A stretch of 64,000 bases of DNA, taken from positions 5,828,001-5,892,000 of the forward strand of contig NZ_CP151726.1 in assembly GCF_038443385.1 (NCBI RefSeq). Reading direction: 5' to 3'. The notes beneath the pieces are model-generated. The model saw nothing but the letters and a program-made list of their open reading frames with translations, was not told the origin of the DNA and did not search any database. Below are positions 30,128-51,640 of the stretch, one piece after another (the stretch's first letter is position 1; every line of letters begins with the position of its first letter). The stretch is from Stieleria varia (GTDB lineage Bacteria > Planctomycetota > Planctomycetia > Pirellulales > Pirellulaceae). Position numbers and translations under genes: made by a program.

Positions 30128-30821
30128 GATCTGACGCACCGTGTGTATCGGAGTGATGGGGAATGAGTCGACAAGATGCCTGCTACGCACTGTTTATCAA
30201 TCGTGAGCCGACGGCGCTAGCCGCGGGCTTTTTGGCTGTTTATCAATCGTGAGCCGACGGCGCTAGCCGCGGGCTTTCTGGCTGTTTATCAATCGTGAGC
30301 CGACGGCGCTAGCCGCGGGCTTTTTGGCGAGAAACGCCGTCATTCGCGGGCCCGTGGCTAGCGCCATCGGCTCACAATGCACGCAGTCGCAATTAATAAA
30401 CAGTGCCTAGCGTTCTTCACGCCAAAGCAGGCTGATCGAGTCGTTAGTGCCATCACCAACGCGAATTGATACAGGTCAAATCAAAAAAGTGGAAAAGCGT
30501 TTTCCTCGCGGCGAGTCTCAGGCTTAGTCTGGACTGCTCAAAGTTTAGGATTGGAGCATTTTGGGTTTGCGCGGGGTCTGCTGTCACCTCCACCAAGGAA
30601 TTTGGGGGAGGTCGGTTCGAGCGAAGCAAGATCCGGGAGGGGCCTACCCTGGGCAATGCGCATTGCTGTGTTTATCCGGCGCGCAGGCCCCCTCCCTCGC
30701 ATTCGCCTGGACGGCTCTGCTCGACCTCCCCCAAGCACCTTGGGGGAGGTGACACGGGGGAATCAATTGGTGGCATCAAGAATACGTGTCAACAACAAAC
30801 TTTGAGCAGTCCAGTCCAGGC
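30128..30821. repeat. Gene-free region with tandem GCTAGCC repeats and GGGGGAGGT palindromes
   Basis: Three tandem units of 46 bp start at about 30190, 30236 and 30282 (CTGTTTATCAATCGTGAGCC, then GACGGCGCTAGCCGCGGGC). An inverted unit at 30351-30406 ends AATAAACAGTG. From 30583 to 30754 a pair of facing elements (CACCTCCACCAAGGAATTTG with GGGGGAGGT; ACCTCCCCCAAGCACCTTGG) encloses 100 bp. ACTTTGAGCAGTCCAG near 30800 also occurs at 4371, and its reverse complement (TGGACTGCTCAAAGTT) at about 30531. No gene seen. Confidence 0.8.
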
Positions 30822-31930: not shown

Positions 31931-32005
31931 CGGGATGTGGCTCAGCCTGGATAGAGCGCTGCACTGGGGGTGCAGAGGTCGCAAGTTCGAATCTTGTCAT
32001 CCCGA
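31931..32005 (+). tRNA. tRNA-Pro (anticodon GGG)
   Basis: All stems can be drawn: acceptor CGGGATG/CATCCCG, D arm GCTC...GAGC, anticodon stem CTGCA/TGCAG with loop CTGGGGG giving anticodon GGG, and T arm GCAAG-TTCGAAT-CTTGT. The discriminator base is A and CCA is not encoded. The 3' half, from the anticodon stem on (31962), recurs at 41535. Confidence 0.93.
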
Positions 32006-32010
32006 CTACC

Positions 32011-32050
32011 GACAAACCCCGCCAAACCAAGCGTTTCGCGGGGTTTTGTC
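32011..32050. terminator. Bidirectional stem-loop terminator after tRNA-Pro / carbonic anhydrase
   Basis: GACAAACCCCGC pairs with GCGGGGTTTTGTC (12 bp with one bulge) around a 15-nt loop, with T-runs on both sides. It lies between the convergent tRNA and carbonic anhydrase genes and can end both transcripts. An identical copy is at 41584-41623. Confidence 0.7.
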
Positions 32051-32067
32051 GTCTCAGGGGTGATCAA

Positions 32068-32730
32068 TCACTTCTTTCGCTTAGAAGGCTTGGTTGCATC
32101 AAATGTCTTGAGGATGTACCGCCGATTGAGCGGTTGTGGAAAACGCGCTTCCGATTGGAATAGCTCTAGTAACTCCATGAGCTTTTTCGTTGGCATCAGC
32201 GTTGGATCTTTAAGCACAACCCAGCTGACGCTCTCGGTAAATGGATCGGTCGTCAGCGAGCCTTGATACCGGAAGTGCTGCTCCCATGTTTTCGGCAAGA
32301 AATCCCATGGATCGGTTAGCACCTTTGGCTCTAGTTCCTCATGCGAGCCAGCCCCCAAAACAGTCTCAATTTGCGTCATCAGTGAAGGAAAAGCAGCTCT
32401 TGCGTTTCCGGGCTCTATAAAGACTCCGATGACTGCCAGCGAGCCGTCATCCACGTTTTGATGAACGAGATGGAGTTCCATCGTATATTGCTCTCCATCA
32501 ACCCAATGTTCACTTGGGTGATGGAAGTGAAACTGTCGGAGATGGAATCGCTTGGAACCAATCGTGATGTATTGTCGCACGTCAGAGGCGAACTCGACTT
32601 TCACGCCATGTTCGTCCTTGCGCACGTGCCCAAGAATGTCGCCATCCCAGTGAATCGACAGTCCTTCACTTCCGAAGTCGGCGTAGATTGCATTTTGCAG
32701 GTTGATGGGTGACTGTTGTTGGTCCGTCAT
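32068..32730 (-). CDS. Cytoplasmic alpha-type carbonic anhydrase (copy 1)
   Basis: A 220-residue protein with alpha-class signatures: QSPINL at residues 6-11, then QFHFHHPSEHW and MELHLVHQN with the three zinc-ligand histidines (FHFH pair and ELHLVH), and RYQGSLTTDPFTESVSWVVL for the substrate pocket. It hydrates CO2 to bicarbonate. Alpha carbonic anhydrases of bacteria are normally exported, but this one begins directly with MTDQQQSPINLQ and has no signal peptide. It lies 62 bp downstream of hsdR on the same strand and so reads as the last gene of the restriction-modification operon, next to tRNA-Pro. A second copy (41641) differs in two residues (Ile/Val, Asp/Asn). Confidence 0.9.
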   Translation of the reverse strand: MTDQQQSPINLQNAIYADFGSEGLSIHWDGDILGHVRKDEHGVKVEFASDVRQYITIGSKRFHLRQFHFHHPSEHWVDGEQYTMELHLVHQNVDDGSLAVIGVFIEPGNARAAFPSLMTQIETVLGAGSHEELEPKVLTDPWDFLPKTWEQHFRYQGSLTTDPFTESVSWVVLKDPTLMPTKKLMELLELFQSEARFPQPLNRRYILKTFDATKPSKRKK

Positions 32731-32792
32731 ACCGTTCCTTAAGCGAAATTGGATGAAGTTTGGATTGAGCTAAAACTCTCGTCCACGGAGTT

Positions 32793-36140
<3,348 letters not shown>

Positions 36141-36242
36141 TTCTAAAGCCAGTTCAACTCTTACAGAGCTAGATATACGCAAGTCGCCTGAAATCAAGGG
36201 TTTACGTCGACCGAAGCATGCGTTCTATGTGTAAAAGCATGT

Positions 36243-37934
36243 CTAATTCTGGGCATCGGCATCGGTTTTAGACATACGCCATTTCGCCCATCGAGTCGTT
36301 CCATCCGCGACAACCGTCCCATCGCGTTTCATCTCCTGTAGCAAGTTCGTCACGAACTGCTTCTTCTGTTTTTCGTCCAAAGCATCCGACAGCTTGTCCT
36401 GGAGCAGACGGTCGATTTGGGGACGGCTGGCTTCCTCGTATTGCGACAGATATTTCTTGACCAGATCCTTGTAATAGTCTTTGTCGAACGCTCGGTTGCG
36501 GATGTACGCCTCCTTGTCGTCCGTGGCTGCCGCTACTTCCGCCGACACAAACAGATTGGGGCGTCGCCCTTCGATTAGCCGTTTTGTTTTGACGGCCTTG
36601 AATTCGCTCTCCGTCAGCGGTTTGTTTTTTTGCACCTTGTCCAACGCAATCACATCCCAAAGACTCAGATCAGCCCGCGCCATCAACATCCGCGTATACC
36701 GCTCGTCCAAGACGCTATTCTGTATGACCAGTTTGACTTCGTTGGCGGTCGAGAAATCATAGTCCGGCATGGGAAACGATCGCTTCTTCTGCGCCTGGAA
36801 AATCCGTTTTATCCCACTGCCGACCGTGTCGATCATCCCTAACCCAACCATCGCTTGAGCAAGGAATGCGTTGCGATAGAGGCTGTACGGCGCATCGCGG
36901 CGGATTACGCTTTCTACATCGCCGGGCAAGAAGGTGCCTTTATTCACGACCACCAGACGATCTTCAAACTCGACGACATCAACCCGTCCACCCTGCGAAT
37001 AATCCTGGTGAGCAATCGCGTTGTGCAATGACTCACGAAGCACCCAAGGTTCGTACTGCAGAATCTCCGTTGGAAACAGTGTTCCCCACGGAAGCACACG
37101 GCAAGTCAGATTGCGGATTTTGCGAAGCAGCGGATCGACGGCCAGCAACAAGGGCGAGTGAAAATGCTGGTAGTCGCGTTCGAGTCCGTCTTTATCCTTC
37201 AGAATCCAAGTCAGTTGCGGGTGGCAGTTACCCAAGAAATGCTGAGCCTCTGGTCTACCGAGAAGGATGATCGCCGTGCGAGTCAACTTGCCGCTGATGC
37301 AGACCTTGGCCTTGTTTAAAAACGTGGTGTCGTCCCATGTCGCTACCTCAGCCTCCAGCGTTGAGTTCTTCACAACGAACTCCTGCCGAGCAAAGGCAAT
37401 CGCATTGGGTTCCAAATCGCTGAGCGTTGCCTCTTCGCAAATGACCGCCGACCAGTCGTCCGCCAGTGCCTGCTTCCGAATCTGTTCAATTTCATGTAGG
37501 TTCAGCGCGCACAGGTTTTCGTGGTCTCTGCCGTAGAAATGCCCTCTCCATGATGTCGGCGAACCTCGCAAGGCTGCCGGAATCTGAAACATCACAACGC
37601 GACCGTCGGGAGTTGTGACTTCGTGGATTTCCTCGAACGTCAACCGATGGCTGGTGTGATTTGCGATCTCTTCCTTCAAACTGTCCAAGTGGGGGCGCTG
37701 TGGCCGATACCGCGAACCGACAATTTGGCGCGGAACCGGCTTGTCCTTCACACCGAAGACCAACCAGCCAAAGGGTTGTCCCTTCAAGTTGGCTTCGTTG
37801 CTGAGTGCGGAAAAGTATTCCCCGATGTCGTCAAAATGCTTGTCGCTCTTGGCTTCCTTGAACTCAAGCCATTCCGTCTCGGCTGGGAGCGACAGGAACT
37901 CCGTCAACTTGGATTGAAGCTCGGTGGGCGTCAT
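36243..37934 (-). CDS. AlbA-2/Schlafen-like domain and HATPase protein of the type I R-M operon
   Basis: A 563-residue protein. Residues about 10-135 (ETEWLEFKEAKSDKHFDDIGEYFSAL, then PFGWLVFGVKDK) are the AlbA_2 (divergent AAA-4/Schlafen core) domain; about 290-400 (LRESLHNAIAHQDYSQGGRVDVVEFEDRLVVVN and VGLGMIDTVGSGIKRIF) match the GHKL ATPase-like region of COG2865 proteins. A C-terminal helical winged-helix-like part follows. Such proteins often sit inside type I R-M operons, where their role in defence or regulation is not settled; Schlafen-type nucleases are a related class. The start overlaps the hsdS stop by 4 bp (ATGA). Confidence 0.85.
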   Translation of the reverse strand: MTPTELQSKLTEFLSLPAETEWLEFKEAKSDKHFDDIGEYFSALSNEANLKGQPFGWLVFGVKDKPVPRQIVGSRYRPQRPHLDSLKEEIANHTSHRLTFEEIHEVTTPDGRVVMFQIPAALRGSPTSWRGHFYGRDHENLCALNLHEIEQIRKQALADDWSAVICEEATLSDLEPNAIAFARQEFVVKNSTLEAEVATWDDTTFLNKAKVCISGKLTRTAIILLGRPEAQHFLGNCHPQLTWILKDKDGLERDYQHFHSPLLLAVDPLLRKIRNLTCRVLPWGTLFPTEILQYEPWVLRESLHNAIAHQDYSQGGRVDVVEFEDRLVVVNKGTFLPGDVESVIRRDAPYSLYRNAFLAQAMVGLGMIDTVGSGIKRIFQAQKKRSFPMPDYDFSTANEVKLVIQNSVLDERYTRMLMARADLSLWDVIALDKVQKNKPLTESEFKAVKTKRLIEGRRPNLFVSAEVAAATDDKEAYIRNRAFDKDYYKDLVKKYLSQYEEASRPQIDRLLQDKLSDALDEKQKKQFVTNLLQEMKRDGTVVADGTTRWAKWRMSKTDADAQN

Positions 37935-39211
37935 GCGGTCGCCTCCTCCAATGCCTCGGCGGTTAGCCCTGAGTCGATGTCGAGGTCTTCCACGTCCAGC
38001 TTGCCGGAGATCAGCTTGGGCAGCAGTAGGTCACGGCTGGTGCGGAGGTTCGCATTCTTTCGGTTCAGATTCAGGATTGCTTCGACCATCGGGGACGCCA
38101 CCTCTGCATAGGAGTCTCGCAGTTCCAAGGGTGGAATCGGAATTTCCATCTTGCCGGTCTGGACCGGACTGAGGTTCTGCTGAGCCACTCCGTTCGCAAT
38201 CTGTTCGAGTCTTTGCCGAGTATCCGGGCTTCTGAACATCCAATAAACAAGCGGGCGATCTTGCGGGCGGTGAGGATGAAGTTTCGCCACACGTTGGTTC
38301 AGCAAGAAGTTCTCGCCGAACACCAGACAGGTGCGGCCTATGTTGCCAGTCAAGGACATCAACACGTCTGCCGTTTCCAAATGGCAGTGTACTGGCATCC
38401 GATCAGGCGGAGAGTCGAGCAAACTCATCGAGTTGGTTTGAAATTCACCGTCATGCACATGCTTGATTGTGACCACCTTGTAACCGCCATCGTCTACGAA
38501 AGTCTTACTCTTGAAAGCGAAGCCTGAGAGTAATTTCAGCAAATCGTTGACAACTCCCGTCTCCCAACCCTCAGGAATCTGGCCGAGTGGTGAATCGACG
38601 AGCTTGACGTTTTCGTGGCCGGGGAAGCGGAAGTTGACGAACCATTCCCGGTAAATCGCCTGAGCCATCTCTTCCAGAATGGCAATGCGGCGGGTGTTGT
38701 TCTCAATCAGATCGTCATACGCCGACAGGATCGAAGCGATCTTACGTTGGGTCGGAAGTGGGGGAATGGAAATCTCGAAGCCGGCGAACGTCGTTTTGTT
38801 CACGATGGGTGTAGCGGCACCACTTGCAATCGACGCAATTTTTTTTCCATGAAATCGCAGCAGGTAATAAACGAACCATGCGTCATATTTGGCGGCGTTA
38901 ACAATCACGCTGTTGATTTGTTGGTTCGTAAAACTTGGGCGGGCGGTTTTGCAGAGCTTCCCGATGGTTGCACCGATGCAGGTAAAGCACACGGAGTCCT
39001 TGGGGAGAATTTGGTTCTTCTGCGACTGACGCCCCTCGTCTGACAAGTATCTTTCAGTGGGAACGTGCGGTCTGTCAAAATCCAAGTCCGACGGAGTAAT
39101 AAACGGGTAGTCATCACCGAAAAGCTCCGGCTTCTTCGACGTAGGTGTCTTGCCCGTAACGATACGGCCCAGTGATCCGATACTCATACTTTGCCAGTCG
39201 GAATGACTCAT
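37931..39211 (-). CDS. hsdS: Type I restriction enzyme specificity subunit HsdS
   Basis: About 426 residues in two half-subunits, each a target-recognition domain followed by a conserved helical spacer. The first TRD (residues about 5-150) ends with FEISIPPLPTQRKIASILSAYDDLIENNTRRI; the second TRD (about 210-370) ends with MEIPIPPLELRDSYAEVASPMVEAI and LRTSRDLLLPKLISGKLDVED. Together they read a bipartite DNA site, one half per TRD, and the spacer length sets the gap. The ATG at 39211 overlaps the hsdM stop (TAATG); a GTG at 39217 is the alternative start. Specificity cannot be read from sequence. Confidence 0.93.
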   Translation of the reverse strand: MSHSDWQSMSIGSLGRIVTGKTPTSKKPELFGDDYPFITPSDLDFDRPHVPTERYLSDEGRQSQKNQILPKDSVCFTCIGATIGKLCKTARPSFTNQQINSVIVNAAKYDAWFVYYLLRFHGKKIASIASGAATPIVNKTTFAGFEISIPPLPTQRKIASILSAYDDLIENNTRRIAILEEMAQAIYREWFVNFRFPGHENVKLVDSPLGQIPEGWETGVVNDLLKLLSGFAFKSKTFVDDGGYKVVTIKHVHDGEFQTNSMSLLDSPPDRMPVHCHLETADVLMSLTGNIGRTCLVFGENFLLNQRVAKLHPHRPQDRPLVYWMFRSPDTRQRLEQIANGVAQQNLSPVQTGKMEIPIPPLELRDSYAEVASPMVEAILNLNRKNANLRTSRDLLLPKLISGKLDVEDLDIDSGLTAEALEEATA

Positions 39212-40803
39212 TAGCACGACGCCTCCAGCAACTTGGCGACGTTGTTCGCAATCCGCTCTTCCAACTCGGACGCTTCGCTGTTCAAGACCTCCAACTCTTC
39301 GTTGAGTTCTTCCAGCCGCTCGGCAAAGACAAAATCGTCTTCCTCACGATCCGCCACGCCGACGTAGCGACCGGGATTCAGGCTCCAGCCCTGTGCTTCG
39401 ATCTCCTCCAACGTGGCGACCTTGCACAGTCCCGCCACGTCCGCGTATTCCAGACGCGGGAAGGTGGCCTTCAAATCCGGTTCCGGTGTTGATTCACTGG
39501 CGGGGACTTCTTCATCTTCACCCGCCACGAACTCCGGCTGCTCACCCCGATACAGCCGCACGATGTTGGCCAGATACTCGATCTGCTTGGGACTGAACTT
39601 GCGGTGTGCCCGGTCGACCTGCCGGAACGTGTGCCGGGCGTCGATAAACAGCACTTGGTCCTTTCGCTTTGTTTTTGATGTGGCCTTGCCTTTATCCAAG
39701 AACCAGAGCGTGCAAGGGAGCGTCACCGTGTAGAAGAAGTTCGGACCGATGGCGACCATCACATCGACGGCGTGCGACTGGAGCAGTTGCTTGCGAATCT
39801 CCATCTCCGATTGGCGAGCGTCGGCGGCTGAGTTCGCCATCACAAAACCGGCTCGGCCCGTGTCGCTCAGGCTGCTGTAAAACCGTTGTATCCAGAGGTA
39901 GTTGGCGTTGTCGGCCCGTGGCATCCCGAACGGGTAGCGGGGATCGTCTTTGATCTTCTCCTTATCCACCTTGTCGACGTTGAACGGGGGATTGGCCATC
40001 ACGAAGTCGAATTTGCCGAGACTGTCGTGGGGGTCTTCGTAGTAACTGTTCCCCAAGCGAATGTCGCCGGACAGCGAATGCACGGCAAGGTTCATCATGC
40101 ACAGTTGCCGTGTTTCGCCGACTCGCTCCTGACCGTAGCAGGAGATTTCCACCGAGGGATTGTTCTGGTGGGCTTTGATGAACTCGGCACTTTGAGCGAA
40201 CATGCCGCCCGATCCACACGCCGGGTCGTAGATGCGTCCGTGGTACGGCTCGATGATCTCGACGATCAGCTTGACCAGCGAGGTCGGCGTGAAGAACTCA
40301 CCACCCCGTTGTCCTTCGGCACGGGCGAAGTTGCCAAGGAAGTATTCGTAAATCTTGCCGAACGTGTCGCCTTCGGCATCCATCGCGATCTGCGAGAAGT
40401 TCTTCAGCAGCGAGACCAGAATGGCATTGTCGATCTTGGTGTAGGTTCGCGGCAGGACGCCCTTGAGGTCGACGTTCTCGGCCTCGACCGACTTCATCGC
40501 CTCGTTGATCGCCTTGCCGATGTTCTCGCCTTCGGGCAGCGACAGCAGGTGTGAGAACCGAGCCTCCGGCGGCACGTACATCACGCCCTTGGCTTGGTAG
40601 TCCTCTTTGCCGATCTTGCGGCGGCCGGAGCCTTTGCCGGCCAATTCTTTTTCAGCGATGGTGAACTTGTGGTCGGCATATCGCAGGAAGATCAGCCCAA
40701 GGACTGGGACCGCGTATTCGGATGACTTGAGGTCGGAGTTCGCCCGAAATTCATCGGCGGCCTCCCAGAGTCGCTTTTCCGTATCGGAATGGTTGTTGGC
40801 CAT
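39211..40803 (-). CDS. hsdM: Type I DNA methyltransferase subunit HsdM
   Basis: 530 residues. The N-terminal helical domain ([22 protein letters not shown] ... [15 protein letters not shown]) and the N6-adenine methyltransferase core are complete: [13 protein letters not shown] (about 168-180), SAM-binding DPACGSGGM (193-201) and catalytic NPPF (271-274). It methylates adenine at the site read by HsdS and forms the M2S modification core to which HsdR binds. GGAAAAG lies just before the ATG. It is the first gene of the operon; the 727 bp upstream (40804-41530) hold no evident gene. Confidence 0.96.
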
Positions 40804-41534
40804 ATCGTCTTTTCCATGCCCTTGATCGCACTACGTCCATTTGTTGCCAAATCTCAGCAAATAGCCTAAGCCCCCCCCGTTCGGGAAACAAGCAGGCAGC
40901 GGACTCAGGGCGTCGGAAGTTGCCCTGACGATTCAGGAGGAGACTACGGTGGACTGAGATCCCCAGTACAACGATCATCGGGTTGCCGCGTTTTAAAAAA
41001 CACGGTGACTCGCGCCACGCTAGACCACTGGTACCCTCTGGGTCCCCAGACACCGATTCCGGGTCAAAATTCCCGAAGCCGATCCAGGAACGTGAAAAGA
41101 AGAGTAGACGCGGTCATTCGTCGACGTTGTCATCGCTCCACCGACCAGTACCGCAGCGATACGGGATGTGGAATTTGAAGTCTACCCGTCATTTGGGAAC
41201 GCAATTTTACAGGCATCAAGGTTCAAAACCGCCCTGCCGATGATGCAGTCGGGTCTTCGCCCGTCACCGAGCCAGCACGTCGAAGCTGGGAACGTGCGGC
41301 CTCCTACCATCTTCCTTCGTGTATCGACGAATCAGCTTTCGGCAGCAACGCGGTTTAAATGGTCACAAATGCGTTCGATAGCGTCTGCCCCGAACACTTG
41401 GGTAACAGAATGACACAAGGCATTCAGTACCGATCGTTCGTCTGATTCCCTGATTTGGTGCAAGCATTGGTGCAAGCGTTCGGCGGCATCGCGATTGACC
41501 GCAGAAAACACGTCGTTTTCCTTCGCTGCTTGTT
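40804..41534. other. Gene-poor stretch between hsdM and the second tRNA fragment
   Basis: No open frame with a convincing start or family is visible. A minus-strand frame at 41332-41534 (AAKENDVF ... ICDHLNRVAAES) is helical and could be the C-terminal remnant of a gene cut off by the repeat boundary at 41535, but its product is unknown and no integrase motif is seen. The promoter of hsdM should lie within the first 150 bp. Confidence 0.45.
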
Positions 41535-42763
41535 CACTGGGGGTGCAGAGGTCGCAAGTTCGAATCTTGTCATCCCGACTACCGACAAACCCCGCCAAAC
41601 CAAGCGTTTCGCGGGGTTTTGTCGTCTCAGGGGTGATCAATCACTTCTTTCGCTTAGAAGGCTTGGTTGCATCAAATGTCTTGAGGATGTACCGCCGATT
41701 GAGCGGTTGTGGAAAACGCGCTTCCGATTGGAATAGCTCTAGTAACTCCATGAGCTTTTTCGTTGGCATCAGCGTTGGATCTTTAAGCACAACCCAGCTG
41801 ACGCTCTCGGTAAATGGATCGGTCGTCAGCGAGCCTTGGTACCGGAAGTGCTGCTCCCATGTTTTCGGCAAGAAATTCCATGGATCGGTTAGCACCTTTG
41901 GCTCTAGTTCCTCATGCGAGCCAGCCCCCAAAACAGTCTCAATTTGCGTCATCAGTGAAGGAAAAGCAGCTCTTGCGTTTCCGGGCTCTATAAAGACTCC
42001 GACGACTGCCAGCGAGCCGTCATCCACGTTTTGATGAACGAGATGGAGTTCCATCGTATATTGCTCTCCATCAACCCAATGTTCACTTGGGTGATGGAAG
42101 TGAAACTGTCGGAGATGGAATCGCTTGGAACCAATCGTGATGTATTGTCGCACGTCAGAGGCGAACTCGACTTTCACGCCATGTTCGTCCTTGCGCACGT
42201 GCCCAAGAATGTCGCCATCCCAGTGAATCGACAGTCCTTCACTTCCGAAGTCGGCGTAGATTGCATTTTGCAGGTTGATGGGTGACTGTTGTTGGTCCGT
42301 CATACCGTTCCTTAAGCGAAATTGGATGAAGTTTGGATTGAACTAAAACTCTCGTCCACGAAGTTTCAATGAGGTGCATAAATGCTTGCTCCCTCACCCT
42401 GGTAGCTGTCGTAGATGTGTTGGTACACCGCGTCGCATTTTTGCTCGTAGAGTTCGGTGGAGTAGGCTCGGGGGAGTTCGTCGAGGACCGTCTTTACGGT
42501 AGAGTAGACGTCGGCTCGGGTGCGTTGTTTCTTTCGCCAATCGAGGACCAGCTTCGCTTCTTTGAGCGTTTGGAGCAGCATTCTGGCGACCTTCTTGACC
42601 TCGGCTTTTTCCTTGTCCGTCAAGTCGACTTCCGGCTTGGTCAACAGATCGAAGAGGGCCAGCTCTTCCTCACTGAGTTGTTCTGCGACACCGCGTTGCT
42701 CTTCCGCACTCAGTTCTTTGACGAAGTCGGTCAGCTTGGCGAAAAAGCCGTCTACATCGAGTC
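41535..42763. repeat. 1.2-kb direct repeat, copy 2 (tRNA-Pro 3' fragment, carbonic anhydrase, hsdR 3' end)
   Basis: Starts at CACTGGGGGTGCAGAGG, i.e. the tRNA-Pro sequence from the anticodon stem to the 3' end (41535-41578), without the tRNA 5' half, and so cannot make a tRNA. The terminator (41584-41623) and the carbonic anhydrase follow exactly as in copy 1. It ends where an IS element has entered the hsdR tail. Confidence 0.88.
41641..42303 (-). CDS. Cytoplasmic alpha-type carbonic anhydrase (copy 2)
   Basis: 220 residues, identical to copy 1 except for two substitutions (Val for Ile in DDGSLAVVGVF; Asn for Asp in DPWNFLPKTW). All zinc-ligand histidines and the QSPINL motif are kept, so it should be active. 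It is intact even though the adjacent hsdR is a remnant, so it has either been preserved by selection or been homogenised recently with copy 1. Its upstream promoter context is now the IS-disrupted hsdR end, so expression may differ from copy 1. Confidence 0.9.
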   Translation of the reverse strand: MTDQQQSPINLQNAIYADFGSEGLSIHWDGDILGHVRKDEHGVKVEFASDVRQYITIGSKRFHLRQFHFHHPSEHWVDGEQYTMELHLVHQNVDDGSLAVVGVFIEPGNARAAFPSLMTQIETVLGAGSHEELEPKVLTDPWNFLPKTWEQHFRYQGSLTTDPFTESVSWVVLKDPTLMPTKKLMELLELFQSEARFPQPLNRRYILKTFDATKPSKRKK

Positions 42764-42767
42764 CCTT
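42366..42767 (-). pseudogene. HsdR C-terminal remnant (second copy)
   Basis: From GLDVDGFFAKLTDFVKEL to the stop this frame matches the C-terminal part of the intact HsdR with scattered substitutions (for example SEEELALF for TEEELALF). The reading upstream of 42767 is IS sequence, so the frame back to 42917 is a chimera, not a protein of this family. The rest of the helicase and nuclease is missing. Confidence 0.85.
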
Positions 42768-44389
42768 GGGCTCGTTGTACCGGACATCTCGGGTGTGTTG
42801 ATTGCATCCCTTTGGAGTCGGCCAGGGGATTTCGCTCTGGACTTTTTGCAATCCGCTGCGAATGATTCTTGCCTTACGGTTCGCGCTGGTGCGGCGAACA
42901 TTGGAGGCCGGTGGCACGGAGGTGCGATTGATGGTTGCGGTTGATTTAGGTGGTGAGTTACAAGCTGTTCAATTCGGTGATGAGCGATTGAGCAAAAGAG
43001 CGATTCAGATCGCTGAGCGATTGCAACAAAGTCCCAACGCTAGCATCCCTGCGGCGATGGGCACTAAGAACGAGCTTGATGCCTGCTACGAGTTCTTCGA
43101 CAATCCGAAAGTAACGCAGCAGAAGATCCTGCAGCCGCACATTGAAGCAACCTACCGTCGCATAGAGCAGACCGACTCTGTCGTTTGCGCGCAGGACACC
43201 AGCGAAATCGATCTGACCCGCCCCAAGCAACAAGTCCAAGGTGCTGGGCCGATGGATTGCGAGTCACGCCGTGGTGCTTTTTTCCACCCGGTGGTCGCCT
43301 TCAATCTGGACGGGGTGGCGCTCGGGCTGCTCGGTCAAAAAACCTATGTTCGCGAGACCCTCAGTACGCTAACGCCATCGCAAAAGACGGATCAGCGACG
43401 CCGTACTCCTATCGAAGAGAAGGAAAGTATACGTTGGCTCGAAGGGCTTACGATGACGCATCAAGCCGCTTTGGCTTGCCCCGAGACGATCTGTGTTTGT
43501 GTCGGTGATAGCGAGGCGGATATCTATGAACTGTTCGTTGCGAAGTCTCAAATCGCAACGTCGAACTTACATATCTTGGTTCGCGCGGGGCAGAACCGAA
43601 ACACGACCGATCGAGAAGATTGGAAGGATCAAGTTCGTCGTTCACCGGTAGTTGGTGAGCAAGTTGTCAACTTGCGTGCTCGCACGGCCAAAGTTGGCAT
43701 TGGTAAGTCGGCACGCAGTCGTTCTCGCGAAGCTCGAACCGCTCAGCTTGAAATCCGTACGGCGGTGGTTGATGTCGCCAGGCCGATTCATGCATCGAAG
43801 GATCTTCTCGCGAGCGGCCGGGTCAATGTGGTGCTGTGCGAAGAAGTCAACGTGCCCGAAGGGGAAGATCCGATTTGCTGGATGCTGGTGACGACGCTAC
43901 CGATTGATACCGAGCAAGACGTTCAGCGAGTGATCCGATGCTACTGTATCCGTTGGCAGATTGAGGTATTTTTCAAAACCTTGAAATCGGGCTGTCGGAT
44001 TGAACATCGTCGATTTGAAGAGATCGATCGGATCAAGAATGCGTTGGCAATGTACGCGATCGTGGCTTGGCGATTGATGTACATCTGCCATATGGGTCGA
44101 TCTTGTCCCGACGTCGGATGCGAGATCATCTTCGAACCGAGTGAATGGAAAAGTGTTTATGCAATCTTGGGGGCTGGAAATCCCTGAATCTGGCTGCCCA
44201 CGCCTGGAAGATGTTGTTCGTGCGATCGCCCGGTTGGGAGGTTTCGTCGACCGCCGCAAGAATGATCCTGGAACGCAGACTTTGTGGATCGGAATGCAAC
44301 GCTGCTACGACCTGTCCAACGCATGGAACAAATTCGGGCCGGGAGCCAAAAAATTTTCTCCCGACTGAGATGTCCGGTACAACGAGCCC
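42768..44389 (+). mobile_element. IS4-type insertion sequence (Tn5-like transposase, 1622 bp)
   Basis: Both ends carry 23-bp terminal inverted repeats starting GGGCTCGTTGTACCGGACAT (left 42768; right, reverse complement, ending 44389). One transposase gene fills the element. The flanks, ...GAGTCCCTT on the left and CCGACGGGG... on the right, do not form a target duplication, so one side was lost by deletion or the element recombined with another copy. It interrupts the second hsdR. Confidence 0.85.
42931..44368 (+). pseudogene. IS4-family transposase with frameshift near the C-terminus
   Basis: From ATG 42931 (GGAGGTG six bases upstream) the frame runs to a stop at 44187 and carries the DDE triad: Asp in CAQDTSEI, Asp in VGDSEADIY and the YREK signature Y-C-I-R-W-Q-I-E-V-F-F-K-T-L-K. 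The expected C-terminal part (LEDVVRAIARLGGFVDRR ... GTQTLWIGMQR) continues in another frame (to 44368). The two frames join across CTTGGGGGCTGG (about 44167-44178), consistent with one extra G. Corrected length is about 479 residues, normal for this family. It is probably inactive, unless the shift is programmed. Confidence 0.8.
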
Positions 44390-44417: not shown

Positions 44418-44500
44418 TGCCGACTTTTTCGTAGAAGCAGTTGGCCGTGTCGTAGCCAAGCTGCGAGAACAGGGCGATGGCCGGTTGTTCGACGAGCGTG
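44418..44500 (-). pseudogene. HsdR N-terminal remnant (second copy)
   Basis: The minus strand encodes TLVEQPAIALFSQLGYDTAN and CFYEKVG, almost identical to residues 10-36 of the intact HsdR. The middle of the gene (about 1000 residues' worth) and the other operon genes (hsdM, hsdS, AlbA) are absent here. It marks the far end of the decayed copy. Confidence 0.8.
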
Positions 44501-44729
44501 CGGATGTTCCTCGACGAGTCTTCACTTGCTCGAATCATGGGGCTTCGAGTTGCCAGATAAAACCCAAACGAGCGAAAAAGTGAACTCGGCAAGGAGTCAA
44601 ACCGATTTGCGCGGAGGCAGTGCTGAAAACACTTGCCAAGATCAAAGGTTCGCAGCCGGTTTTCGGCATCGCTGAGACCAACTAATACGCTCATTGGCGA
44701 ATTTTTTCGGAATCATGTGTCACAATCGA

Positions 44730-44745
44730 CAACTGAAGTCAGTTG
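44730..44745. promoter_or_regulatory. Candidate operator: 16-bp palindrome before the sigma-factor gene
   Basis: CAACTGAAGTCAGTTG is a perfect dyad (7-bp arms, 2-bp centre) that ends 7 bp before the ribosome-binding site GGAG of the sigma-factor gene. It may bind a regulator or fold in the leader RNA. It is the only such palindrome in the 230 bp before the sulfatase operon. Confidence 0.4.
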
Positions 44746-44764
44746 TTGTTATGGAGATAAACCA

Positions 44765-45292
44765 GTGACATTTTTGCGTGACCGTGACCTCGCGACCTTC
44801 GAGCAGATCGTTGCCGCTCACGAAACAGCGGTGCGGGCGTTTGTGGCTGTCCGGATTGATGATCCGTTTGAAGCTCATGATCTCGCTCAGGAAGTATTTC
44901 TGTTGCTCTGGCGGAGGTTGGAAGAAATTGATCTCGACCAACCTTTGCGTCCGTGGTTGCTTGCGGTGGCCATGAATCTGGTGCGGCAGCACCGCCGAAA
45001 GAGCCGCGCAACTCCCATTGGCGGCAACGATGGAGTGCTCGAACTGCTTCATGATCGTATAGACAGCAGCGATGTTGTCGACGGCCCGGTGTTTGTGGCG
45101 CTAGAGCGTTGCCTTGGCAAGCTCGACGAGGCGGCTCGACAGCTCATCCGATGGCGGTATGAGGACGGCCTTGTGATTCGCGAGATCTGCCAGCGCGTCG
45201 GCAGTGGACATTCTGTGGTGACTATGAAGCTGCATCGCCTGCGGTCACTGCTGTTCGACTGCATTCAAACAAACACGCAGGAGGCTTCGTGA
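44765..45292 (+). CDS. ECF-like sigma-70 family RNA polymerase sigma factor
   Basis: 175 residues from a GTG at 44765 with GGAG eight bases upstream. The sigma-2 region is FEQIVAAHETAVRAFVAVRIDDPFEAHDLAQEVFLLLWRRL (core-binding and -10 helix) and region 4 is LDEAARQLIRWRYEDGLVIREICQRVGSGHSVVTMKLHRLR (helix-turn-helix for -35). This is the short planctomycete/Verrucomicrobium type seen in front of FecR/LamG genes. Its TGA overlaps the next ATG by one base. As first gene of the operon it probably drives the sulfatase cluster, perhaps its own promoter too. Confidence 0.88.
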   Translation: MTFLRDRDLATFEQIVAAHETAVRAFVAVRIDDPFEAHDLAQEVFLLLWRRLEEIDLDQPLRPWLLAVAMNLVRQHRRKSRATPIGGNDGVLELLHDRIDSSDVVDGPVFVALERCLGKLDEAARQLIRWRYEDGLVIREICQRVGSGHSVVTMKLHRLRSLLFDCIQTNTQEAS

Positions 45293-46851
45293 TGAACCGT
45301 GACCAGCGACTGGCCGCATGGATTGAAGGCGAACTCGATGCGAACTCGAACGAGGAATTGCTTCGAGATCTTTCGGCTGACGAAAGCTTCGCGAGTGAAG
45401 CTGCGGAGCAGTTACAGATGAAACGCCTGCTAAGTTCACAAGCGATGGATGAGAATGAGTTCACGCGCGAACTGCTATTGAAGGTTCAGGCTCTGAGTCA
45501 CCCTGCTCAGGTGCCACCGACCGAGCGTGCCGTGCTGAAACGGTTGCAGCAGCGTCGGTGGTGGAATCGCGCGGGCCTCATTGCTGCTGGCGTGTCTGCG
45601 GTGGCAGCCATGGTGATGTTGCTGGTCTTCCGGCCAGATCAATTTCCACCTCCTGCTCCGATGGTGCGCGTGTTGGCGACCGAGGGTGTGCAGTCGCTGG
45701 ATGTGCGGGCTCTGGAGGATTCGCAGCTGGTCACGATAGAATCAGGCATTCTGGAAATCGAACTCGGTTCAGAGACTCGACTCGTGTTCGAAGGCCCCGC
45801 GGAATTCGCTGTTGTTTCAGTGAACGAGGTACGACTGGTTAGCGGCCGCTGTTACGCGGAGATGGACGAGGGTGCATCTGGCTTGCGGATCAAGACACCG
45901 TCAGGTGAAGTACTCGATCTAGGCACGCGTTTTGGTGTCGAAGTGCTGCCGTCTGAAGAAACATCGGTGCATGTGTTTGAGGGCAAGGTGGAAGTCGACC
46001 TGTCGCAGCAGCGATCGGTCCTGAGCGAAGGTGAGGCGGCCCAATGGACGTCGATCGGAGAACTCACCACGATTTCTCTGGAAGCTGAGCGATTCGTCAG
46101 TCGGTTGCCGGGCAGCGATCAACAACACACAAGATGGGTTCATTGGTCATTCGACGAGGGCAGTGGCGAATTCACTGTGCCTCAAGGCGAAGGATTTCCG
46201 GATGCCATGGAGCCTGCTCAGCTGCACGGTGCTCGTTGGATTGAGCGAGATGGTTCCGGCGCACTGGAATTCGACGGTTTGGACGACTGGGTAGAAACGG
46301 CTTTTGCAGGTCTCGGTGGAGACAAGGATCGCACGGTGGCCGCGTGGGTCAAATTGGCTCCGGACTACGGCGCGTCAAACGGTCAGGCAATCGTCGGCTG
46401 GGGTGATTTCAGCATTCTTGATCCGGATCGCCGACGCGGTGCGGCGTGGGAACTGGGAATCGGCGATACGAACGTGCCTGTCGACACGTTCGGTCGACTG
46501 AAGATCGCGGTCGGCGGGCCGTTGATCGTCGGGCACGAAGATTTGCGTGATGGAGTCTGGCATCATGTGGCCGCAGTGTATCTGGGCAATGGTGCTGCCA
46601 AAGGTCGCGGTGTCGTGCTGCTGTACGTTGATGGCCAGCTACAAAGGCGGACTTTCGGCAAGAAGCGTTTGATGCTCGATACCGACGTTCAGTCCAGCAA
46701 TTCCGAACCCGTCCAGTTCGGTCGCCAGGTCATGCGAGCAACGGCTCAGCGAGAGTATTTCAAGGGCGCGATCGACGACATCTTTCTATTCAACCGTGCA
46801 CTCAGCGGCGACGAAATTCGTTCCCTGATACAAACCAATTCTGCTCTATGA
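45292..46851 (+). CDS. FecR-domain membrane protein with C-terminal LamG-like lectin domain (anti-sigma type)
   Basis: A 519-residue protein. Residues 1-90 are cytoplasmic and charged, in the position of an anti-sigma segment; about 92-115 is a single membrane segment (AGLIAAGVSAVAAMVMLLVF). The FecR domain spans about 125-260 (LVTIESGILEIELGSETRLVFEGPAEFAVV and LDLGTRFGVEVLPSEETSVHVFEGKVEVDL). A concanavalin/LamG fold follows (ALEFDGLDDWVETA, WHHVAAVYLG and IDDIFLFNRALSGDEI). The likely job is to hold the sigma factor and release it when the outside lectin domain binds a glycan. The stop overlaps the next ATG (ATGA). Confidence 0.85.
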   Translation: MNRDQRLAAWIEGELDANSNEELLRDLSADESFASEAAEQLQMKRLLSSQAMDENEFTRELLLKVQALSHPAQVPPTERAVLKRLQQRRWWNRAGLIAAGVSAVAAMVMLLVFRPDQFPPPAPMVRVLATEGVQSLDVRALEDSQLVTIESGILEIELGSETRLVFEGPAEFAVVSVNEVRLVSGRCYAEMDEGASGLRIKTPSGEVLDLGTRFGVEVLPSEETSVHVFEGKVEVDLSQQRSVLSEGEAAQWTSIGELTTISLEAERFVSRLPGSDQQHTRWVHWSFDEGSGEFTVPQGEGFPDAMEPAQLHGARWIERDGSGALEFDGLDDWVETAFAGLGGDKDRTVAAWVKLAPDYGASNGQAIVGWGDFSILDPDRRRGAAWELGIGDTNVPVDTFGRLKIAVGGPLIVGHEDLRDGVWHHVAAVYLGNGAAKGRGVVLLYVDGQLQRRTFGKKRLMLDTDVQSSNSEPVQFGRQVMRATAQREYFKGAIDDIFLFNRALSGDEIRSLIQTNSAL

Positions 46852-48476
46852 AAATTCTCCTACTGCTCTCACTGTTTCTGGTAGCCACGACCGTCTCGGC
46901 GGCTGAGTCCCGGCCGAATATCGTTTTGATCATCACCGATGACATGGGATTCTCTGACGTCGGTTGCTATGGCGGTGAGATCGACACGCCGAACATTGAT
47001 TCACTGTCTCGCAGAGGTGTCAAGTTCTCGCAGTTCTACAACTGTGGAAAATGCGAACCAAGTCGCGCGGCTCTGATTACCGGGCATCAGTTCTGGACGC
47101 ACGATCCGAACGTGGCGATTCGCAAGGACAGTCCAAACTTTGGCGAGATCATTCAGGCGGCGGGTTATCGCACGATGATGATCGGCAAGTGGCACGCGGC
47201 CGGCGTTCCGTTTCAGCGAGGATTCCATCGACACTTTGGATTCATGACGGGCGGCTGTGACTTCTTTCTCGGGAACGACACGTTCACGCTGGATGGCAAA
47301 CCGTGGCCTGTGCCGAAAGACGATTTCTACGCCACATATGAGTTCACAAATTATGCCGATCAGTTCATTCGCGACGAGCATGCGGAGCATCCTGATCAAC
47401 CTTTCTTCATGTACTTGGCTTACAACGCGCCCCATTCGCCCATTCAGGCACCTGCCGACCAGGTTGCGAAGTATCGCGGCAAGTACCTCAAGGGTTGGGA
47501 CGTGATTCGCAAAGAACGATTCGCACGACAGCAGGCGATTGGACTCGCAGGCGACGGGTGGAATTTCCCGGACCGCCCCGAAAACGTTCCTCCGTGGGAT
47601 TCGCTCGATGAGAAATCTCGCGACTTTGAAGACCTTCGTATGGCAACTTACGCCGCGATGGTTGATTGCGTCGACCAAGGCGTCGGTCGTGTGATGCGGA
47701 CACTGAAAGAACTCGACATTGATGACAACACGCTGGTCATTTTCATGAACGACAACGGAGCCAGCCCCAACGATCGCGTTCGACGCGGAAACTTCGGGAC
47801 GGCAGGGACAACGTGGAACGTCGGCGTCGCGTGGGCTCACGCATCCAACACTCCGATGAAATTCTACAAACGGACTCAGCACAGTGGTGGAGTCACAACA
47901 CCGTTCATTGCATGTTGGCCGGACGGGATCAAGCCGCAAGCCGAGTTCAACGATCAACCGCTACACATCACCGACATTCTGCCCACGCTTATCGAAATCG
48001 CCGAGACAACATACCCACAGAACTTTGGAGGCAAACGGCATCCACCTTTGCCAGGGCGTTCGTTCGCCGACGTGCTTACCGACGGTGAAACCTTGCCGCC
48101 GATACCGCTGCATTTTTCTTTATTCAACAACATGGCTGTTGTCGATAGCGGTTGGCGAATGGTGACAGCCTACGACCAGCCGTGGCAACTTTACGACTTG
48201 ACCAACGACCGTACCGAAACACGCGACGTGGCGGACTCCAATCCAAAACGTTTGCGAGAGATGCTGGAGCTACAGAAGCAGTTTTCGGAAAGACCTGACG
48301 TTCGCCTCCGACTTAAGTCCGGCGAACGTGAACCGGAATACGCCCCGATCTACAAATCGGACGGCAAGATCGGACCAGGCGCTCGCGAAAGCGTGCCCGA
48401 TGAAAAGGCGTCGCTCAAACGAGTCAAGCAACGCGCCACTGGAATACAAGTTAAAGAATTGGAGTCGAAGCAATGA
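46848..48476 (+). CDS. Secreted sulfatase 1 of the cluster
   Basis: 542 residues with a signal peptide (MKILLLLSLFLVATTVSAAE). ITDDMGFSDVGCYGGEIDTP carries the calcium-binding aspartates; the formylglycine motif is C69-E-P-S-R in FSQFYNCGKCEPSRAALITG. IGKWHAAGVPFQRGF and MNDNGASPNDR (metal site) follow, and the protein ends in a charged tail. It is an arylsulfatase-type S1 enzyme for an unknown sulfated glycan. The gene starts inside the stop of the FecR gene and its own stop overlaps the next start (ATGA), so the cluster is one translationally coupled operon. Confidence 0.93.
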   Translation: MKILLLLSLFLVATTVSAAESRPNIVLIITDDMGFSDVGCYGGEIDTPNIDSLSRRGVKFSQFYNCGKCEPSRAALITGHQFWTHDPNVAIRKDSPNFGEIIQAAGYRTMMIGKWHAAGVPFQRGFHRHFGFMTGGCDFFLGNDTFTLDGKPWPVPKDDFYATYEFTNYADQFIRDEHAEHPDQPFFMYLAYNAPHSPIQAPADQVAKYRGKYLKGWDVIRKERFARQQAIGLAGDGWNFPDRPENVPPWDSLDEKSRDFEDLRMATYAAMVDCVDQGVGRVMRTLKELDIDDNTLVIFMNDNGASPNDRVRRGNFGTAGTTWNVGVAWAHASNTPMKFYKRTQHSGGVTTPFIACWPDGIKPQAEFNDQPLHITDILPTLIEIAETTYPQNFGGKRHPPLPGRSFADVLTDGETLPPIPLHFSLFNNMAVVDSGWRMVTAYDQPWQLYDLTNDRTETRDVADSNPKRLREMLELQKQFSERPDVRLRLKSGEREPEYAPIYKSDGKIGPGARESVPDEKASLKRVKQRATGIQVKELESKQ

Positions 48477-50068
48477 TGAAAGCTACTGATTTACATATCC
48501 TACTGCCGCTCTTGTCATGCCTGATCATCGGCAATGTCTCAAGCGTGTCCGCTCAAGAACGTCCGTCTAACATTCTGTTCATTTACGTCGAAGACCTTGG
48601 CTATTACACCAGCGAGCGAGCCGCGCGAGAACCCAATTCAAAGATTGCCGGACTTAAGACCCCGAATCTTGATGCATTCGCAAAACAGAGCGTTGTGTTC
48701 ACGCGCGCGTTTTGCGGCCAGAGCGTTTGCTCGCCCAGCAAGAGTGCGATCTACAGTGGCTTGTTGCCGCATGCAAACGGCATCTGGAGAAATGTCTTCA
48801 ATCGGCATGGGAAACGAGGCGGCCCCGAAAACTGGATCCCACTTCCTGATCCGATGACGAAGGCCAACGACCCGTCAAATCTGGGCGTTGGCGGCATGCA
48901 CGAGGACATTCAGACGCTGATCGAAAAGCTGAAAGCCGCCGACGTTTTCTGCGCGCTCTCGGGAAAGTTGCATGTCCAGCCCGCCCGCAAGTTCCCCTAC
49001 GACGGCTTCGTTGATGCGAGCGATCTTGATTCCGTTATTAGAACTGCCGGGGAGAAGCCGTGGTTTTTCTGGTGCAATCCCGGTGACACACATGCACCGT
49101 TCTGGAAATCGGTTCGCCACAAACTGACTGACCCAAGCGACCGTAACTCCGCACCGAAAGATGTTGATCCCGCTTCAATCGAGATGCCACCATGGCTGCC
49201 CGACACTGCGAAATCCCGCGTCGATCTTGCCCAGTACTATTCCAACGTTCGTAACATCGATCAGTTCGTCGGTGAGTTGATGCAGAAACTCGAAGCATCA
49301 GGACAAGCCGATCAAACTCTGGTCGTGTTCACCGGCGACCACGGCATTCCGGTCCAACGTGGCAAGACCAGCGTCTATCCAGCCGGAACGCACGTGCCCT
49401 GTTTCGTACGGGGACCGGGTGTGGAAACCGGCCGGACGCTCAACGCACCGGTTTCGCAATTGGACTTCAACCCCACGTTTCTTGAAGTTTACGGACTAGA
49501 GGCGGAACAGGTCTGTCACGGAAGATCGCTATGGCCGATCCTTTCTGGAAAACAGGATCGCTTTGTCGACCGCTCCACCGTGATGACGGAGACGAACAAC
49601 AGCTTCATGTCCACGCCCGGAAAGAAAGGCGATACGACCGCTGCCCGAGCCGTCTGTGATGGTCGCTACTACTACATTAGGAATCTCATTCAGGATAAGA
49701 CGAGCCTTCCAGAATCGGAAGCCATTCATGTTGGCAGCGGCCATGGAGAATACGGTGATTCCGGACCGCAGTACGCAAACGACCTGCACGACGAAACGGT
49801 TCGACACAAGGACGACCAGCCTTTGCCATACGAACTGTTGCGGCAACTTTGCATGAGCGACGCGCCGCCGGAAGAGCTTTACGATCTCGACACGGATCCA
49901 TGGGCGGTGATGAACCTGATTGATGACCCAGCCCACACTGAAGTTCTTCTGCGACTTCGCGAAGAGTTTTCCGCTTGGCGCGAGGCGACTAACGACCAAG
50001 ACGTACATCCGAAACAAATTCCACGTCGACTGTCGCCGCGGTCACTCGCGAGAGGGTTAGACCGATGA
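48473..50068 (+). CDS. Secreted sulfatase 2, with non-canonical C-S-P-S-K motif
   Basis: 531 residues with a signal peptide (cut near SVSAQ). It begins SNILFIYVEDLGYY, an E-D variant of the first metal motif as in N-sulfoglucosamine-sulfohydrolase-like enzymes, and FTGDHGIPVQRGKTSVYPAGTHVPCFVRGPG holds the second metal site. The maturation motif is C86-S-P-S-K90, where the family has Arg at the last position. Arg is part of the recognition signal for the formylglycine-generating enzyme, so maturation may be reduced. The gene overlaps both neighbours (ATGA). The substrate is unknown. Confidence 0.88.
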   Translation: MMKATDLHILLPLLSCLIIGNVSSVSAQERPSNILFIYVEDLGYYTSERAAREPNSKIAGLKTPNLDAFAKQSVVFTRAFCGQSVCSPSKSAIYSGLLPHANGIWRNVFNRHGKRGGPENWIPLPDPMTKANDPSNLGVGGMHEDIQTLIEKLKAADVFCALSGKLHVQPARKFPYDGFVDASDLDSVIRTAGEKPWFFWCNPGDTHAPFWKSVRHKLTDPSDRNSAPKDVDPASIEMPPWLPDTAKSRVDLAQYYSNVRNIDQFVGELMQKLEASGQADQTLVVFTGDHGIPVQRGKTSVYPAGTHVPCFVRGPGVETGRTLNAPVSQLDFNPTFLEVYGLEAEQVCHGRSLWPILSGKQDRFVDRSTVMTETNNSFMSTPGKKGDTTAARAVCDGRYYYIRNLIQDKTSLPESEAIHVGSGHGEYGDSGPQYANDLHDETVRHKDDQPLPYELLRQLCMSDAPPEELYDLDTDPWAVMNLIDDPAHTEVLLRLREEFSAWREATNDQDVHPKQIPRRLSPRSLARGLDR

Positions 50069-51534: not shown

Positions 51535-51616
51535 AGTTTTGCATCCGCAATTGAAGGAGGCATACGTACCACGGAAATTGGTACTCTGTGTGACTCCGTG
51601 TCTCCTTGGTGATCAC
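51507..51616. repeat. Inverted repeat of CACAGAGTCACAGAG type between sulfatases 3 and 4
   Basis: Left arm ACCACAGAGTCACAGAGTGA faces GTACTCTGTGTGACTCCGTG and CTCCTTGGTGATCACC on the right. The interior contains AAGGAGG. The arms would form a hairpin in the operon messenger RNA just downstream of the third sulfatase stop and before the fourth sulfatase, where expression may be attenuated. Confidence 0.5.
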
Positions 51617-51640
51617 CATTCCCTCGCATCGCTGAATCTC

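What the first reader, a model, noticed from the sequence alone, without database searches (positions are those of the whole stretch)
31931..42763. Type I restriction operon bracketed by a 1.2-kb direct repeat that starts inside tRNA-Pro
The 3' half of tRNA-Pro, its terminator, an intact carbonic anhydrase gene and the 3' end of hsdR are repeated at 41535-42763, exactly 9573 bp away and with no indels. The full tRNA is on the left; the right copy has only its 3' part, the arrangement left by integration at a tRNA 3' end. Recombination between the repeats would delete hsdM-S-AlbA-R and one carbonic anhydrase in one step. No integrase is recognisable between them, which makes the origin puzzling.
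Basis: partly seen in the sequence, partly recalled or inferred. Interest (0 to 1): 0.75.

Follow-up and report, generated by a model that had tools for sequence, protein, structure and literature searches.

The report
Decayed tandem restriction islands at tRNA-Pro
A DNA-defence (restriction) gene cluster sits in a tRNA gene as the worn-out remains of two back-to-back mobile islands that have no integrase left, and the end sequence of a relative's intact island hints at which kind of integrase put it there.

Summary
The repeat is real: 31962-33194 and 41535-42767, 9573 bp apart, no indels, about 97% identical. It starts at nucleotide 32 of tRNA-Pro(GGG), two bases before the anticodon loop, a usual crossover place of tyrosine integrases. 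So these are two related elements in tandem, the right one a wreck.

The integrase puzzle is largely answered. A congener (G012) carries an integrase-bearing element in the same tRNA with the same crossover. A paired TTGGTGCAA-type repeat inside its right end recurs at the same distance in the window, and also at G012's left end, within the integrase gene. The window keeps only the right pair; integrase and left pair are missing and a carbonic anhydrase gene lies there.

The two hsdR ends diverged as working genes (dS 0.49, dN 0.013), while att plus carbonic anhydrase is almost identical. I infer accretion of two elements, then gene conversion that overwrote the integrase. This is a decayed, CIME-like island: a new member of a known kind. 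Whether it still moves is untested.

The parts
31931..32006 (+). tRNA-Pro(GGG), full; nucleotides 32-76 form the left end of the repeat (attL side)
   Evidence: ARAGORN
31962..33194 (.). left copy of the direct repeat: tRNA 3' half, terminator, carbonic anhydrase, hsdR 3' end
32014..32046 (+). terminator-like inverted repeat after the tRNA; its reverse strand is 91% identical in protein to the C-terminal end of the G012 integrase, which overlaps tRNA and terminator
32068..32730 (-). alpha-type carbonic anhydrase, left copy, 220 aa
   Evidence: Pfam PF00194
32793..36197 (-). hsdR, complete
   Evidence: Pfam HSDR_N, SWI2_SNF2, T1RH-like_C; NCBIfam TIGR00348
36243..37934 (-). AlbA_2 / HATPase_c_4 protein between hsdS and hsdR
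37931..39217 (-). hsdS
   Evidence: Pfam PF01420; PADLOC
39211..40803 (-). hsdM
   Evidence: Pfam HsdM_N, N6_Mtase; PADLOC
41453..41496 (+). presumed integrase arm-type region with two TTGGTGCAA (41455-41463, 41467-41475); matches the right and left inner ends of the G012 element
   Evidence: function inferred
41535..41579 (+). displaced tRNA-Pro 3' part (nucleotides 32-76), att between the two elements
41535..42767 (.). right copy of the direct repeat
41641..42303 (-). carbonic anhydrase, right copy, intact frame
42366..42767 (-). 3' end of the second hsdR, cut by the IS
42768..44389 (+). IS4/Tn5-type insertion sequence; transposase 42802-44187; inverted ends 42768-42790 and 44367-44389
44418..44500 (-). 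5' fragment of the second hsdR
   Evidence: 96% to 36032-36114

Best explanation
Two related integrative elements, each with a type I restriction hsdR, came to lie in tandem at tRNA-Pro(GGG) through a tyrosine integrase of the G012 kind, which crosses over at the anticodon loop and restores tRNA and terminator. The left element still holds a complete restriction operon and its right arm, but has no integrase and no left arm; a carbonic anhydrase gene lies in their place. The right element is a remnant: its hsdR was split by an IS, most of hsdR and everything upstream is gone, and so is its own right att. Shown: two copies, start of identity, shared arm repeat, missing integrase, IS and split hsdR, divergence pattern. 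Inferred: that the repeats bind the integrase; accretion rather than duplication; and that a gene conversion, pairing at att on one side and at hsdR on the other, copied att-carbonic anhydrase-hsdR 3' end from right to left and so erased the integrase (this sub-step about 0.45). The operon probably restricts unmodified incoming DNA, as type I systems do.
For: Repeat and its start at nucleotide 32 of the tRNA. G012: 518-aa tyrosine integrase overlapping the same tRNA-Pro, displaced fragment starting at the same nucleotide 32. Right arm: alignment score 46 against 14.9 +/- 2.3 (0 of 500 shuffles) with the G012 right end; 38 against 17.0 +/- 2.1 (0 of 300) with the G012 left end; the pattern occurs in 2 of 14 genus genomes, the window's and G012. 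Repeats shared by the two inner ends in 3 of 3 integrase-bearing elements tested, in 0 of 2 integrase-free ones. hsdR 31 silent and 3 amino-acid codon differences of 134, carbonic anhydrase 1 and 2 of 221, Fisher p 1.5e-13; dS 0.49, dN 0.013. IS and second hsdR 5' end. In relatives the same operon sits beside an integrase at a tRNA (G121, G026) or beside integrase pieces (G036).
Against: The conversion event is not seen directly; no genome shows the state before it, and the source of the carbonic anhydrase gene is unknown. The arm function is inferred from position and pairing only. Two other tRNA-Pro fragment ends, of G148 and G080, also scored a little above shuffles against the window's arm (2 and 3 of 500). 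The exact empty site was not found. The 5' hsdR fragment differs at only 3 of 83 positions, less than the 3' end, though that part is also the better conserved one in relatives.
Confidence: 0.75

Rival explanations
1. Plain tandem duplication of one integrase-less island by unequal crossing-over, followed by IS insertion and decay of the right copy.
For: Same gene order and no indels over 1234 positions; the att-carbonic anhydrase part is nearly identical.
Against: The hsdR ends differ at dS 0.49 with dN 0.013, so both were working genes for long, while carbonic anhydrase beside them hardly differs; a duplication needs later conversion as well, and a long-lived tandem repeat would be prone to collapse (general knowledge).
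Confidence: 0.15
2. Two successive insertions of already integrase-less elements, moved in trans by the integrase of another element; carbonic anhydrase had replaced the integrase before either arrived.
For: Both copies have carbonic anhydrase next to att; integrase-free loci of the same operon clade exist at tRNA-Arg in G125 and tRNA-Gly in G022.
Against: The left arm found in all three integrase-bearing elements tested is missing, so site-specific insertion in this form is doubtful; the contrast between carbonic anhydrase and hsdR divergence is left unexplained.
Confidence: 0.12
3. Assembly artefact: the repeat is a duplicated contig end.
For: None found.
Against: 41 differences, mostly silent in hsdR; single contig; the DNA just inside the right copy matches a G012 element end; an IS and a second hsdR 5' end follow.
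Confidence: 0.01

Closest known systems
CIME (cis-mobilizable element) and tandem accretion, as described for ICEs and IMEs (PMC5704250, passages read)
   Same: att sites kept, integration genes absent, tandem with a related element at the end of a tRNA gene
   Different: The left arm-type region is missing as well as the integrase; descent from a conjugative element and mobilisation not shown; integrase probably overwritten by conversion (inferred)
tRNA-gene genomic islands as mapped by Islander (PMC4383910, passages read)
   Same: Full tRNA on one side, displaced 3' fragment in the same orientation on the other, anticodon-centred attachment
   Different: Islander requires an integrase gene in the interval; here none was recognised
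Integrase-bearing element at tRNA-Pro(GGG) of the congener G012 (L044)
   Same: Same tRNA, same start of the displaced fragment, same right arm repeat at the same distance
   Different: G012 has the integrase and both arms and no restriction operon among its listed genes
Restriction islands of G121 (tRNA-Leu) and G026 (tRNA-Arg)
   Same: hsdR 86-90% and hsdM 95-96% identical, hsdR 3' end towards the tRNA
   Different: Other tRNAs, integrase present; in G121 the fragment starts at nucleotide 64; no carbonic anhydrase match

Membership tests
CIME | keeps attL and attR | tested here: inconclusive
   Both tRNA 3' copies present, right arm present, left arm missing
CIME | has lost integration and transfer genes | tested here: met
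   No PF00589 hit between the copies, panel negative except att; the named genes are restriction, AlbA_2 and carbonic anhydrase. Transfer genes were judged from those gene calls only
CIME | derives from an ICE or IME | not tested
   G012 element genes were listed but not searched for conjugation genes
CIME | can be mobilised in cis after accretion | not testable with these tools
   Needs an excision or transfer experiment
Islander-type tRNA island | full tRNA and displaced fragment in the same orientation | tested here: met
Islander-type tRNA island | integrase gene in the interval | tested here: not met
Type I restriction-modification system | hsdR, hsdS and hsdM genes together | tested here: met
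Type I restriction-modification system | modifies and restricts DNA | not testable with these tools
   Needs a methylome or phage plating

The most novel reading that the evidence does not exclude
In this bacterial family one clade of type I restriction operons travels as att-flanked cassettes that keep losing, or do without, their own integrase (no integrase recognised in 3 of the 6 loci examined, at tRNA-Pro, tRNA-Arg and tRNA-Gly) and are moved in trans by anticodon-loop integrases of other elements; overwriting of the integrase from a neighbouring element would be one route to that state.
Probability: 0.12. Interest if true: 0.6.

Novelty: new member of a known kind. Interest (0 to 1): 0.4.

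Why it matters
It suggests, at nucleotide resolution, how an integrative island may lose its integrase: by being overwritten from a related element next door, leaving one arm behind as a fingerprint of the enzyme. The same fingerprint could assign other integrase-less islands to their integrases, and the tRNA-Pro site offers graded states in related genomes in which to test accretion, conversion and immobilisation of defence genes.

Tried and rejected
Exact empty site: 16 loci beside pyrF were fetched (two of them only about 1.2 kb). tRNA-Pro(GGG) was found in 12 of 16. None carries the window's right flank (sigma factor, FecR-like, sulfatases) next to it; only low-identity sulfatase and similar matches appeared. 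The gene listing was cut in the middle, so I did not see every gene of every locus. The first sulfatase of the right flank has only 41-44% matches elsewhere in the genus at the cut-off used. The junction before integration could not be established.

Carbonic anhydrase as an old host gene beside tRNA-Pro: not supported; no match in the 6 other genus members that one search listed, none in the 16 pyrF loci. In G032 a related gene (49%) lies on a 7.7-kb segment present twice at 99% identity, beside a 313-aa protein that I judged by eye to be XerC-like, so such genes can be mobile. The scan of genome contigs with this protein gave 4 relatives at 31-43%. The plasmid collection gave only tRNA matches.

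A palindrome beside the right att as a signal common to all such elements: looked at, not general.

The window's right arm was compared with 12 fragment ends: G012 stands out (0 of 500 shuffles); of the 11 others, G148 (2 of 500) and G080 (3 of 500) are marginal, the remaining 9 had 41 or more of 500.

Survey of 29 hsdR loci: partial tRNA copies in 4 of 6 close-clade loci and 0 of 23 distant ones; integrase-panel hits other than the att overlap in 3 of 6 and in 3 of 23 (one of these weak). The 29 are the window and 28 of the hsdR matches, chosen for hsdR score and contig length, in 20-kb stretches or less. The motif expression used in that script found nothing even in known integrase loci, so it counts for nothing. 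PF00589 alone misses some integrases here (that of G121 scores 20.6 bits, below the cut-off), hence the panel. The list was cut short, so absence from it is no proof. The IS search scored 40 of 47 candidates. In G201 a 16.7-kb segment next to tRNA-Pro also showed no integrase by eye but transposase-like genes, so lack of an integrase is not special to restriction cargo.

Prior reports; nothing in the listings described this island or integrase loss by conversion (one search returned no paper). Only listings were seen, apart from passages of PMC5704250, PMC4383910 and PMC8371274. The library holds open-licence papers only.

Full report
What was checked. 31962-33195 and 41535-42768 align without gaps at offset 9573 with 41 mismatches in 1234 positions. 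It starts at nucleotide 32 of the tRNA-Pro(GGG) gene 31931-32006, two bases before the 7-nt anticodon loop. The tRNA 3' half was found only twice in the 9.72-Mb single-contig genome at up to 3 mismatches. The mismatches speak against an assembly copy.

The right copy ends because an insertion sequence begins at 42768: 23-nt perfect inverted ends at 42768-42790 and 44367-44389, an IS4/Tn5-type transposase at 42802-44187, no target duplication visible in its flanks, no second copy in the genome among the candidates scored (40 of 47). Beyond it, 44418-44500 is 96% identical to 36032-36114 near the start of hsdR. The right copy is thus what is left of a second hsdR-bearing element; the middle of its hsdR, the rest of the operon and any right att are gone.

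Divergence. Between the copies 0 of 106 positions differ in tRNA 3' half plus terminator, 3 of 663 in the carbonic anhydrase gene, 2 of 62 between the genes, and 36 in the hsdR 3' end, rising away from the tRNA. In hsdR 31 codons differ silently and 3 by amino acid, of 134; dS 0.49, dN 0.013. Carbonic anhydrase has 1 and 2 of 221. Fisher p for the silent differences is 1.5e-13. The two hsdR ends are nearer to each other (91%) than to the four relatives compared (69-80%). They diverged as working genes, while att and carbonic anhydrase look as if made alike recently.

The site in relatives. Of 16 loci fetched beside pyrF, 12 have tRNA-Pro(GGG), and 2 of the 16 have further 3' fragments within the stretch read (G012, G024). 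A pattern search of 199 family genomes found the tRNA 3' half in 28, and two or more copies in 10 of these. In G012 a tyrosine integrase of 518 aa lies on the opposite strand, its 3' end running through terminator and tRNA, and the displaced fragment 9 kb away starts at the same nucleotide 32. In the window's own genome that integrase matches only the two tRNA/terminator overlaps.

The fingerprint. Just inside the right att, window 41453-41496 matches the same place in G012: TTGGTGCAA-type units at -80 and -68 from the start of the tRNA part in both. The alignment scores 46 against 14.9 +/- 2.3 for shuffles (0 of 500). G012 has the same pair again at its left end, inside the integrase gene, and the window's right arm matches that too (38 against 17.0 +/- 2.1; 0 of 300). 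Repeats shared by both inner ends occur in all three integrase-bearing elements tested (G012, G148, G121; 0 of 300 shuffles each) and in neither of two integrase-free ones (window 135 of 300, G125 141 of 300). I read them as arm-type integrase binding sites; that is inference from position and pairing. The longer pattern occurs in 2 of 14 genomes of the genus, the window's and G012. Against this, the right ends in G148 and G080 also scored a little above shuffles.

The cargo in relatives. Among 149 family genomes searched, five loci of other genera have the closest hsdR: G026, G125, G121 (86-90%), G036 (74-77%), G022 (55-64%). G121: at tRNA-Leu with an integrase and a 23-nt fragment. G026: next to tRNA-Arg(TCT) with an integrase-like gene; no fragment found in the 58 kb read. 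G036: integrase pieces in more than one frame just past the hsdR 3' end, no tRNA in the 58 kb read. G125: between tRNA-Arg(TCT) and a 44-nt 3' fragment that also starts two bases before the anticodon loop, no integrase recognised, operon in the opposite orientation. G022: between tRNA-Gly and two fragments, no integrase recognised, draft assembly. In the 29 hsdR loci surveyed, partial tRNA copies were found in 4 of 6 close and 0 of 23 distant ones. So this operon clade looks like cargo of tRNA-targeted elements, and the integrase is often the part that is lost.

Reading. An element with a restriction operon entered tRNA-Pro beside an older, related remnant of the form att-carbonic anhydrase-hsdR. 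Conversion between the copies, paired at att and at the hsdR 3' end, would at one stroke give the near-identical att-carbonic anhydrase block, the rising divergence inside hsdR, and the loss of integrase and left arm with survival of the right arm. That two elements lie in tandem is well supported; the conversion step is my inference (about 0.45). An IS and deletions wrecked the right element. Recombination between the 1.2-kb repeats could still remove the operon; this was not tested.

Known or new. The passage read in PMC5704250 describes a like course for ICEs and IMEs: integration, decay to a CIME that keeps both att sites, accretion of another element. Islander counts 2083 of its 3919 islands as anticodon-centred (PMC4383910, passages), and the review passages in PMC8371274 describe the anticodon loop as the overlap region of such integrases. 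The window differs in the missing left arm and in the likely way the integrase was lost. I file it as a new member of a known kind and not as a proven CIME, since mobilisation and descent from a conjugative element were not tested.

Names. No call identified the genus. From memory, G162's length (7,145,576 bp) is that of Rhodopirellula baltica SH1 and G002's that of Stieleria maiorica; the window would then be a Stieleria-like planctomycete. That is recall, not a test.

Noticed in passing
window 34259-34403: Stretch inside hsdR where alignment to G121 and G036 breaks off (143 nt here against 101 nt in G121); a similar sequence lies inside hsdM of G125 (34281-34349 against L118), so it looks like a small dispersed repeat read in frame.
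   Followed up: no
window 36243-37934; L117, L118, L119, L120: The slot between hsdS and hsdR holds different genes in relatives: AlbA_2 protein in the window, 285 and 511 aa in G026, GNAT-like 221 aa plus 293 aa in G125, 236 aa in G036, none in G121. From memory, prrC sits in the same slot of EcoprrI.
   Followed up: partly
window 40952-40974: 23 nt 87% identical to the right end of the IS at 44363-44385, upstream of hsdM; perhaps a relic of another IS end.
   Followed up: no
window 30190-30378 and 30582-30754: Three 46-bp head-to-tail copies with an inverted copy after them, and a 33-nt inverted repeat with 107 nt between, both upstream of pyrF.
   Followed up: no
L173 and L174 (G032): A related carbonic anhydrase gene lies on a 7.7-kb segment present twice in G032 at 99% identity, beside a 313-aa protein that looks XerC-like by eye.
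   Followed up: partly
L126 and L046 (G003): A tRNA-Pro 3' fragment with pieces of a G012-like integrase lies 70 kb downstream of full tRNA-Pro on the same contig, with another integrase directly beside the tRNA.
   Followed up: partly
window 44633-53026: ECF sigma factor, FecR-like gene and several sulfatase-like genes begin right after the second hsdR fragment; the one searched (46848-48476) has only 41-44% matches in the genus. Names of FecR-like and sulfatases are by eye.
   Followed up: partly
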